Below, in pieces: positions 38,077 to 40,573 of a stretch of 64,000 nt of DNA (positions within the stretch are counted from its first letter, which is position 1; each line of letters starts with the position of its first letter). The DNA is from Solirubrobacteraceae bacterium. GTDB taxonomy: Bacteria; Actinomycetota; Thermoleophilia; Solirubrobacterales; Solirubrobacteraceae. A model generated the notes under the pieces. It was given only the letters and a program-made list of their open reading frames with translations. It was not told where the DNA came from and did no database searches. The stretch lies in assembly GCA_030447505.1 (NCBI GenBank), contig JAUJOT010000003.1, positions 310,001-374,000 of the forward strand, in the 5' to 3' direction. The position numbers and the translations under genes were made by a program.

Positions 38077-38985
38077 TCAGGACGCCGCGGCCGCGCGGCG
38101 GCGTCGGGCGCGCCTCGCCGGCTTCCAGCACTCGTCGAGAAAGGCCGCGATCTCGGTCGTCAGACGCTCGGGCGTGAAGCGCAGCTCGACAAGCGAGTCG
38201 GCCTCCAGCAGCCGCGCGTTGGGCAGCTCCTCGGCGAGCGTTCCGGCGTCGCTGAGCGGATGCACCGGGTCGCGCCGGTGGCCGATCACGAGCGTCGGCG
38301 CGAGCATCGCGCGGCGCTCCGCCGCGTACGGTGCGACGCGCCCGAAGAACAGGCCCCGCAGGACCGCGCCACTGGGGCCGGGGTCCTGGCGGACCGCGGC
38401 GAGGACGACGTCGGCCCAGAACGGCAGCACGCGGCGCGGCACGGCGCGCGCGGCGAGGGCTGTGAGCCGCGCGACCGGCTGCGCGACCGCCAGGCCGATC
38501 AAGAGCGGGCCGAACGCGACCAGGCAGGCGATCAGCGCGTGGTCGAGGACCGGCATCTCGACGACCATCCCGCGGACCCGCGCGGGCGCGAGCGCGGCGA
38601 CCTCGAGCGCCGTGTTCGCTCCGAGCGAGGTGCCGAGGATGACGGCCTCGTCGATCTCGAGGTGGTCGAGCAGCGCGACGACCTGCTCGGCGAAGATCGA
38701 CGTCGAGTAGCTCGACGGCTCGGTCGGGCGGTCGGATCGGCCGTGACCGAGCAGGTCGATCGTGACGACGCGGTTGCCGCGCGCGGCGAGCGCGCGCGCG
38801 AGCGGCTCGTGCATGCGCTGGGACAGCAGCAGGCCGTGGATCAGGACGACCGCGCGCCCACCGCAGCCGTACTCGCCGTAGGCGATGCGCTGCCCGGCAT
38901 GACGAAAGCTGGGGATCGCGCAACGATAACCGTCCAACCTCTGACGACGACGCCGGTTGGAAGGGCGTGTCAGGTTGTCGAGCAT
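38077..38985 (-). CDS. Alpha/beta hydrolase
   Basis: 302 aa from ATG 38985. The fold is clear: AVVLIHGLLLSQRM (oxyanion HG motif), VVTIDLLGHGRSDRP, then the nucleophile elbow LGTSLGANTALEVA with Ser in G-T-S-L-G, and VIGHRRDPVHPLSD carrying a late acidic residue. The usual catalytic His near the C-terminus is not obvious: LEADSLVELRF stands where S-H is expected, so activity is uncertain. The ATG shares bases with the divergent sigma factor's possible ATG (38984); a shorter start (TTG 38937) would relieve this. Substrate unknown. Confidence 0.82.
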   Translation of the reverse strand: MLDNLTRPSNRRRRQRLDGYRCAIPSFRHAGQRIAYGEYGCGGRAVVLIHGLLLSQRMHEPLARALAARGNRVVTIDLLGHGRSDRPTEPSSYSTSIFAEQVVALLDHLEIDEAVILGTSLGANTALEVAALAPARVRGMVVEMPVLDHALIACLVAFGPLLIGLAVAQPVARLTALAARAVPRRVLPFWADVVLAAVRQDPGPSGAVLRGLFFGRVAPYAAERRAMLAPTLVIGHRRDPVHPLSDAGTLAEELPNARLLEADSLVELRFTPERLTTEIAAFLDECWKPARRARRRRAAAAS

Positions 38986-40573
38986 GCGTGCCGATACGAC
39001 TCTCATGGACGGATTCGTCGCTCCTGTGCCGAGGCGGCGGCTCGCGCTGCCGCGCCGATCGCTGCGCAGCGCGGCCGACGAGCGCCTCGTCGCGCAGACC
39101 CGCGGCACCGACGGGCGCGCCGCACGCGCCGCATTCGAGGTCCTCTTCGACCGTCATAACCGCGGCGTGCTCGCCTTCTGCCGGCACATGCTGGGCTCGC
39201 TCGAGGAGGCCGAGGACGCCGTCCAGCACACGTTCAGCGCCGCCTACACCGCCCTGCTGCGCGACGATCGCGAGATCGCGCTGCGCGCCTGGCTGTACGC
39301 GATCGCGCGCAACCGCTGCCTGTCGATGCTCGCCGCGCGGCGCGAGCAGGTCGCGCTCGACGACGTCGACGGCCTGCTGCCGTCGACCGCCGGCCTCGCG
39401 CTCGAGGTCGAGCGGCGCAGCGACCTGCGCGAGCTGCTGGCCGACATGCAGCGCCTCCCCGACGACCAGCGCGCGGCGCTCGTCCTCGCCGAGCTCGAGG
39501 CGCACACCCACAAGGAGATCGCAGAGATCCTCGGTGTGCCCGTGGCGAAGGTCAAGGCGCTCGTCTTCCAGGCGCGGGAGACGCTGATGATCCGCCGCCA
39601 GGCGCGCGAGACCGATTGCACGCAGATCCGCGAGCAGCTCTCGGTGCTGCGCGGCGGCGCGCTGCGCCGGCGCGAGCTGCGCCGCCACGTGGACTCCTGC
39701 GAAGGCTGCGGGATGTTCGAGGCCGAACTGCGCCGCCAGCGCGCCGGCATGGCGATCCTGCTGCCGGTCGCGCCGACGCTTGCGCTCAAGAACGGCACGC
39801 TGGCGGCGACGTTCGGAGTGACCACGACGTCGACCGCGGCGGGGATCGGCACGATCTCGGCAGGCGGCGCCGTCGCGGGGATCGCGGTCGGCACGAAGGC
39901 GATCGCCACGAAGGCGCTGGCGGTGCTCGCGCTCGCCGGCAGCGCGGGCGGCGGCGGATACGTGACCGTCAGCGAGGTCCGCGACGCGCGCGCCGCGACG
40001 CGCGCCGAGGCAGAGTTCCAGCGCGGCACCGGCGCGGGCGCGGGCGCCGCGAAGGCTGCGCCCGCTGCGTCCGCGCTCAGATCGCCGGCGACGGCCTCGC
40101 CCGGCTCGACGGCCAGCCCGGGGACGGCGGATTCCGCCGCAGCGAGCAGCTCCGGCGGCGGCGGCGTGAGCGGCCCCGAGCGGGCAGGCGATCGCTCCGG
40201 CGGTCGCTCGGACGGCGCCCCGGGCAACTCCGTCGCGGCGCGCTCGGACCTCGCCGCCGCCGCCGGAGCCGGTCGCGACGGCGTCGACAAGAAGCGCTCG
40301 GTGGCGCGCAGGAGCGCCGCCGGCAGCCGCCGCGCCGGCTCGAAGACCAGCGCCGAGCGGGCGGCGACGAAGGGCACGCAGCGCGAGGCGCAGCGCGACG
40401 CGCTCGCGGCGCGCCGTGCCCGTCCGCTGCAGGAGGCGCTGCGCGGACGCAAGGCCGACGCTGCGCGGGGCGCGCAGCAGAAGCCCGTCAGCCCGCCGCA
40501 GACGACAGCGCCGCCTTCGCCCCAGCGCCCCGAGCGCCCGCTCGAAGCCGCGCCCTCCGCCGCAGCGCGCTGA
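38984..40573 (+). CDS. ECF-type sigma factor fused to anti-sigma-like zinc finger and TM tail
   Basis: 529 aa from ATG 38984; ATG 39005 is an alternative. Sigma region 2 (about 45-110) has [20 protein letters not shown] and [18 protein letters not shown]; region 4 (about 150-200) has [20 protein letters not shown] followed by [20 protein letters not shown]. Directly after it comes [17 protein letters not shown], an H-xxx-C-xx-C pattern of zf-HC2 anti-sigma domains. A Gly/Ala/Thr-rich hydrophobic region with likely TM helices (about 265-325) and a long Ser/Ala/Arg-rich tail follow. Sigma and its brake therefore appear to be one membrane-bound chain, so release may need proteolysis. Confidence 0.85.

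What the first reader, a model, noticed from the sequence alone, without database searches (positions are those of the whole stretch)
38984..40573. Sigma factor with built-in zinc-finger brake and membrane tail
ECF regions 2 and 4 are followed directly by an H-xxx-C-xx-C anti-sigma-type finger, hydrophobic segments and a long low-complexity tail. Sigma and anti-sigma are normally two proteins. A single tethered chain implies control by proteolysis or by the finger's redox or zinc state.
Basis: partly seen in the sequence, partly recalled or inferred. Interest (0 to 1): 0.55.

Follow-up and report, generated by a model that had tools for sequence, protein, structure and literature searches.

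The report
Sigma factor with built-in brake
A soil-type actinobacterium carries a gene switch (sigma factor) fused in one chain to a domain of the kind that normally restrains it and to a probable but weak membrane anchor; such fusions are known, but here they form a conserved family, and this member's gene and several secreted-protein genes appear to share one promoter signature.

Summary
The fusion is real. The ORF is an ECF sigma factor (Pfam regions 2 and 4) followed by an anti-sigma-like domain with C...H-x3-C-x2-C; the four ligand residues are among only ten invariant columns in 45 fused proteins. The genome has eight such long-tailed proteins. But it is under purifying selection, and two relatives carry extracytoplasmic-type modules beyond it: SH3_3, and thrombospondin-3 in a shifted frame. 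New here: CCAACC-N15-[CG]GTT, an ECF-type promoter word; AACC-N15-[CG]GTT lies upstream of 10 of 13 clade members and 0 of 32 other family members (window 38934-38958). A stricter, start-codon-coupled pattern has five sites in this genome: the sigma gene, three genes for signal-peptide proteins (one GH5-like), one without a gene. Best reading: a tethered, autoregulated one-component sigma factor freed by proteolysis, like ECF48/52/53. Inhibition, membrane insertion and proteolysis are inferred. New variant of a known kind.

The parts
38934..38958 (+). Predicted ECF-type promoter of the sigma gene, CCAACC-N15-GGTT (-35-like CCAACC 38934-38939, -10-like GGTT 38955-38958)
   Evidence: AACC-N15-[CG]GTT upstream of 10 of 13 clade members and 0 of 32 other family members; AACC-N15-CGTT is the top word pair in an unbiased count, 8 of 13 against a maximum of 5 in 20 shuffles; place
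39005..40573 (+). Fusion gene: ECF sigma, anti-sigma-like domain, linker, weak hydrophobic segment, tail; probable start ATG 39005 (alternative ATG 38984)
39143..39343 (+). Sigma-70 region 2
   Evidence: PF04542, 51.8 bits
39431..39586 (+). Sigma-70 region 4
   Evidence: PF08281, 51.5 bits
39617..39814 (+). Anti-sigma-like domain: Cys205 (39617-39619), His228 (39686-39688), Cys232 (39698-39700), Cys235 (39707-39709), then helices 3 and 4
   Evidence: ligands invariant in 45 of 45; 39 of 44 excised domains match NCBIfam antisigmaE at E<=0.1, the window's own copy not among its listed matches; four helices predicted (model residues 203-267, which are two less than the numbering used here); coordinates
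39815..39910 (+). Gly/Ala/Thr-rich linker
   Evidence: dN/dS 0.18 against the closest relative, 29 codons
39911..39973 (+). Candidate membrane segment [21 protein letters not shown]
   Evidence: best 19 residues KD 1.67, flat Hessa sum 3.71; dN/dS 0.23 for residues 301-325; similar stretch at the same place, mostly after a Lys, in relatives
39974..40570 (+). Low-complexity basic tail, presumably outside the cell; a helix is predicted at about 40349-40474
   Evidence: net charge +16, no Cys; dN/dS 0.71; helix in the full-length model

Best explanation
This is a one-component, self-restrained ECF sigma factor. Regions 2 and 4 form the sigma; the fused class I-type anti-sigma domain folds back on them and keeps the protein off RNA polymerase (inferred). 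A weak Ala/Gly-rich segment holds the chain at the membrane with the tail outside (likely, not shown). A signal acting on the tail or envelope leads to cleavage near the membrane by a site-1 and then a site-2-type protease, and trimming of the cytoplasmic remainder frees the sigma (inferred from IutY and ECF52). The freed sigma transcribes its own gene and a small set of genes for secreted proteins from CCAACC-N15-[CG]GTT promoters (supported by sequence only). The zinc site is most likely structural.
For: Domains and fusion. Paralogues and orthologues with the same order. Segment and linker under purifying selection, tail relaxed. Extracytoplasmic-type modules beyond the segment: SH3_3 in 1 of 45 members (by my reading of the tails it is L120) and five TSP_3 stretches, 60.5 bits, in the shifted frame of paralogue L002. 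Clade-specific self promoter. Genome sites of the strict pattern: 38 rows against 2 rows for the reversed control in 8 genomes; in the window's genome five sites, namely the sigma gene, three genes that start 8 to 10 nt after the motif and have signal-peptide-like N-termini (KD15 2.27 to 2.69), and one with no gene found. Two of the three keep the site in the closest relative. A second copy next to the sigma gene precedes a signal-peptide gene in 3 of 10 orthologous loci. Precedents: PMC8999054, PMC5826349, PMC5411451.
Against: Hydrophobicity is marginal: flat Hessa sum 3.71, while 21 of 22 window ORFs with a KD>1.8 segment reach 1.3 or lower and the other 21 ORFs have 3.79 or more; none of 39 family members reaches 1.3. 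The full-length model gives the segment no confident structure. The tail is basic, and flank charges only weakly favour N-in (19 of 39 for, 8 against). Core model pTM is 0.50, so packing of the brake on the sigma is not shown. No protease is linked. 3 of 13 clade members lack the exact promoter word. The looser genome pattern is noisy: 6 rows against 6 for the control in G005. The finger is below Pfam's cut-off in the window protein.
Confidence: 0.58

Rival explanations
1. Soluble self-inhibited sigma factor: the Ala/Gly-rich segment does not span the membrane, the tail is a disordered cytoplasmic region, and release is by ligand, partner or a zinc/redox change.
For: Marginal hydrophobicity; basic tail in the window protein; L117 and L015 have the finger without a membrane segment; soluble class I anti-sigma factors are enriched in zinc motifs (PMC7406223).
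Against: Segment and linker are conserved while the tail is not; SH3_3 and TSP_3 modules in tails of relatives; tails lack Cys in most members.
Confidence: 0.22
2. The fused finger domain is not a brake but a structural or activating part; the sigma is active when made and the tail only places it.
For: C-terminal extensions are needed for activity in ECF42 and CorE (PMC8999054); packing against the sigma is not shown.
Against: 39 of 44 excised domains match an anti-sigma factor model; four predicted helices, as in class I anti-sigma domains.
Confidence: 0.15
3. The fusion is an assembly or frame artefact.
For: Paralogue L002 does show a shifted frame in a GGC-rich repeat.
Against: The same architecture in 45 aligned proteins; coding signature through the tail.
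Confidence: 0.02

Closest known systems
ECF52 sigma factors (SCO4117 of Streptomyces coelicolor)
   Same: One chain with ECF sigma, zinc finger, membrane region and long extension; truncation and autoregulation data fit release from the brake (PMC5826349, passages; PMC8999054).
   Different: No carbohydrate-binding match in 45 members; weak membrane segment; several paralogues per genome, against one in S. coelicolor; ECF group models were not available.
ECF48 and ECF53
   Same: Described as C-terminal fusions with a zinc finger, likely of ZAS type, and one or two membrane helices (PMC8999054).
   Different: No sequence of either group was compared here; group assignment is open.
IutY (ECF243) of Pseudomonas putida
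   Same: Sigma and anti-sigma in one polypeptide, freed by Prc and RseP (PMC5411451, passages).
   Different: IutY's anti-sigma domain is periplasmic; here it is a zinc domain directly after region 4, and no FecR-type match was found in 45 members.
Two-protein ECF systems with zinc anti-sigma factors (RsiW, ChrR, RsrA)
   Same: H-x3-C-x2-C and predicted helices; a profile of the domain finds RsiW and ChrR in the PDB, but only weakly (E 0.12 and 0.42).
   Different: Two genes there, one gene here.

Membership tests
ECF sigma factors | Sigma-70 regions 2 and 4 | tested here: met
   PF04542 and PF08281 over cut-off in the window protein; both in 45 of 45 members at E<=0.01
Class I anti-sigma domain, zinc type | H-x3-C-x2-C motif, here with an upstream Cys | tested here: met
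   Invariant in 45 of 45, an [HC]-x3-C-x2-C match being the entry criterion
Class I anti-sigma domain, zinc type | Three-helix bundle plus a fourth helix | tested here: inconclusive
   Four helices predicted, the fourth with low confidence; the fold lists are filled by sigma chains
Class I anti-sigma domain, zinc type | Profile match to anti-sigma families | tested here: inconclusive
   39 of 44 match NCBIfam antisigmaE and 25 of 44 zf-HC2 at E<=0.1; the window's own domain reaches only RsrA 13.2 and zf-HC2 15.7 bits, both under cut-off
Class I anti-sigma domain, zinc type | Binds and inhibits the sigma | not testable with these tools
   Needs biochemistry; pTM of the core model 0.50
ECF52 | Zinc finger after the sigma in one chain | tested here: met
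ECF52 | Membrane helix or helices | tested here: inconclusive
   Marginal segment
ECF52 | C-terminal carbohydrate-binding domain | tested here: not met
   No such Pfam match in 45 members at E<=0.01
ECF48 / ECF53 | Match to the group's profile | not testable with these tools
   Group models not at hand; the classification paper is not held
IutY / ECF243 | FecR-type anti-sigma domain | tested here: not met
   No such Pfam match in 45 members at E<=0.01
ECF41 / ECF42 | SnoaL-like or TPR extension | tested here: not met
   No such Pfam match in 45 members at E<=0.01

The most novel reading that the evidence does not exclude
Solirubrobacteraceae and Thermoleophilaceae have multiplied one-protein signalling units: in each, a variable outer tail (plain linker, SH3, thrombospondin-3 repeats) is the sensor, a deliberately weak membrane segment is the cleavage switch, the fused zinc domain is the brake, and each paralogue group has its own promoter word. 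The window's member would sense the state of the envelope or of polysaccharides and turn on its own gene and secreted, partly glycosidase-like proteins: a one-chain counterpart of two-protein polysaccharide sensors.
Probability: 0.27. Interest if true: 0.68.

Novelty: new variant of a known kind. Interest (0 to 1): 0.5.

Why it matters
According to the 2022 review (PMC8999054), IutY was the only fused sigma/anti-sigma whose release by proteolysis had been characterised. This family offers a promoter word and a short list of predicted targets, so the tethering and release model becomes testable with a reporter in a laboratory host. One genome also keeps eight such proteins, which raises the question of how they avoid cross-talk; the distinct promoter words of two paralogue groups (AACC-N15-[CG]GTT, and [CG]AACTT) suggest an answer.

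Tried and rejected
Redox or zinc sensing by the finger: no supporting evidence, kept within a rival. A linked protease gene: none recognised by eye among the neighbouring ORFs; M50 matches lie elsewhere. A two-way promoter for the divergent hydrolase: the motif in the window is palindromic (both strands hit), but the hydrolase homology starts so close to it that I do not claim it. A leaderless housekeeping-type promoter: [CG]ATAAT six bases before ATG in L018, L019, L021, L022 and L024, CACAAT in L023, a wider gap in L025, but only GATACG at that place in the window. Fold searches listed sigma chains only, so they tell nothing of the anti-sigma-like part. A profile of the domain against the PDB gave no significant true relative; its best row (E 0.00065) is a collagen IV protein and looks like a coincidence of Cys and His. 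The plasmid search gave ECFs of which none covers 80% of the query. Searches for this family in print: (listings only, except the papers named); the last (Thermoleophil, sigma factor, zinc finger) returned 0 papers. I found no description there, but the 2021 ECF classification paper is not held, so it may already hold a group for these.

Rows dropped: nine rows were marked duplicate (eight with a finger, among them L005, nearly a copy of L007, and L011 without). L139 and L142 were missed by my local search but show the same architecture by eye; they are in no alignment. L015 (finger, no membrane segment) is in A2 but not in A3 or A4. Of 146 matches listed in 7 genomes I read 42 loci (30 returned, 12 fetched). 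The flank-charge count uses 39 of 45 members. In one search at least four of the 26 loci had too little upstream sequence to be tested (L233, L242, L245, L247).

Full report
What is there. The ORF at 38984-40573 encodes an ECF sigma factor with regions 2 and 4. It is followed directly by a domain with Cys205, His228, Cys232 and Cys235 (numbering from ATG 39005, the probable start), a Gly/Ala linker, a weakly hydrophobic stretch, and a basic low-complexity tail of about 200 residues. The reading frame is coding to its end by codon-position GC: third-position GC is 0.90 or more in every part.

It is a family. The genome of the window gives 15 matches to the protein. Eight of these (L001-L007, L012) have the fused finger and a long C-terminal part, L002 with its tail in another frame; L015 has the finger with a short end. 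A scan of a public genome collection gave 10 close loci (L016-L025), all with H-x3-C-x2-C. Seven of these loci led to whole genomes with further members. In an alignment of 45 fused proteins the ten invariant columns include all four ligand residues. Entry to that set required an [HC]-x3-C-x2-C match, so the last two Cys columns are built in; the upstream Cys, and His rather than Cys at the second place, are not. Two more divergent members were seen by eye.

The fused domain. NCBIfam's antisigmaE model matches 39 of 44 excised domains and zf-HC2 matches 25 of 44 at E 0.1 or better, but the window's own copy is weak: RsrA-type 13.2 bits and zf-HC2 15.7 bits, both under cut-off. AlphaFold2 on the 44-row core alignment gives four helices after region 4, mean pLDDT 85.8, pTM 0.50; the parts are thus predicted well and their packing is not. 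In published complexes helix 1 of a class I anti-sigma domain binds region 4 and helix 4 binds region 2 (PMC7406223, passages); whether this happens inside one chain here is inference.

The membrane question. On a flat Hessa scale the best 19 residues of the window protein after the finger sum to 3.71. In the window, 22 of 43 ORFs have a segment with KD above 1.8; 21 of these reach 1.3 or lower and one has 5.43 (one of the 21 is the alpha/beta hydrolase, which need not be a membrane protein). The other 21 ORFs have 3.79 or more. Family members lie between 1.42 and 5.21, 21 of 39 under 3.79. A separate anti-sigma-type ORF in the same genome has 1.33, and the protein at L130 has -2.85. Shuffling the C-terminal region gives an equal or better KD peak in 21 of 2000 trials for the window protein; across 18 members the count runs from 0 to 829 of 2000. 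So the segment is weak and, in some members, not beyond composition. Points for a membrane role: it sits at the same place, mostly after a Lys, in relatives; linker and segment have dN/dS of 0.18 and 0.23 against the closest relative while the tail has 0.71 (25 to 29 codons for the first two, so rough); one member's tail matches SH3_3; and paralogue L002 has, in a shifted frame, a homologous segment followed by five thrombospondin-3 stretches (60.5 bits). Flank charges favour N-in in 19 of 39 and the reverse in 8. I put membrane insertion with the tail outside at about 0.7.

Its own promoter. Upstream of the clade's genes, AACC-N15-[CG]GTT occurs in 10 of 13 members and in 0 of 32 other family members; at other spacings from 8 to 22 the clade has at most 1, and at 23 it has 4. 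An unbiased count of all pairs of four-letter words gives AACC-N15-CGTT as a top pair, 8 of 13, against a maximum of 5 in 20 block shuffles. The window's copy is CCAACC-N15-GGTT at 38934-38958. Such a pair resembles ECF promoters, with an AAC-containing -35 and a CGT-type -10 (recalled, from no call). Another paralogue group has [CG]AACTT upstream in 8 of 8, against 0 of 13 in the main clade and 3 of 24 in the rest.

Predicted targets. CCAACC-N15-[CG]GTT gives 15 rows in the genome of the window against 0 for the reversed pattern, but several rows lie inside coding regions. In the seven relatives it gives 73 rows against 23, and in G005 6 against 6, so this pattern alone is noisy. The stricter CAACCT-N14-[CG]GTT, followed after 5 to 14 bases by ATG or GTG, gives 38 rows against 2 in eight genomes; a few rows are double counts of one site. 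In the window's genome it has five sites: the sigma gene, three genes with signal-peptide-like N-termini that start 8, 10 and 9 bases after the motif (L194, L202, L218), and one site with no gene found. By a generous rule 11 of 43 window ORFs have such an N-terminus. L202 is weakly like GH5 cellulases (21.4 bits, cut-off 23.5), and its relative L206 in G007 passes the cut-off (36.6 bits); they are 52% identical. L202 and L218 keep the site in the closest relative. Among 26 GH5-like loci only L202, L229 and L231 have the site; L230 and L232, also close, do not. At the sigma locus itself a second copy precedes a signal-peptide gene in L021, L023 and L025; L024 has a copy without a clear such gene; the other six of the ten loci have none of this kind. 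Sites in other genomes also precede genes without a signal peptide (L196, L209) or lie inside genes.

How it probably works. A brake fused to its sigma, held at the membrane, freed by proteolysis, feeding its own promoter and a small secreted regulon. Shown by sequence: fusion, conservation, promoter word, predicted sites. Inferred: inhibition, membrane insertion, cleavage, signal. Site-2-protease-type genes are present but are present in all 14 control genomes too.

What is known. The review PMC8999054 (outline, section 3.5 part 1 and the tables read) names ECF48, ECF52 and ECF53 as fusions with a zinc finger, likely of ZAS type, and one or two membrane helices, and says that only IutY had been characterised experimentally. 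SCO4117 (ECF52) is an activator whose truncated form supports release (PMC5826349, passages). So the architecture is a known kind. What I did not find in print, in the searches named under Tried and rejected, is this family in Thermoleophilia, its promoter word and its predicted targets. PMC8103513 was read in passages only.

Noticed in passing
L002 (G000:C3:647877-648803, minus), tail L002:191-1315 minus: The closest paralogue has its membrane segment and a thrombospondin-3 repeat tail in another frame, the break lying in a GGC-rich tandem repeat: sequencing error or slippage switch.
   Followed up: partly
L130:1201-2520 (G000:C7): Protein with an ECF-like N-terminus by eye (no Pfam sigma match), a zf-HC2-like finger, a strong membrane helix and a Pro/Ala tail: perhaps a fused sigma that lost region 4.
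   Followed up: partly
L117 next to L110 (G005:C9:220988-224265): Two fused members in a row, one with and one without a membrane segment.
   Followed up: no
L026-L050: Many actinobacterial ECFs here have an Ala/Gly/Val-rich hydrophobic stretch and a long tail soon after region 4 but no finger.
   Followed up: partly
upstream of L003, L104-L109, L124: Another paralogue group has [CG]AACTT upstream in 8 of 8, suggesting group-specific promoter words.
   Followed up: partly
upstream of L018, L019, L021, L022, L024: [CG]ATAAT exactly six bases before ATG, as for a leaderless housekeeping-type promoter, besides the ECF-type word.
   Followed up: partly
L005 and L007: Two nearly identical fused members in the window's genome, a recent duplication.
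   Followed up: no
L010 / L011 (G000:C5:117375-118814): Two ECF genes close together, the second followed by a separate anti-sigma-type ORF with finger and membrane segment.
   Followed up: no
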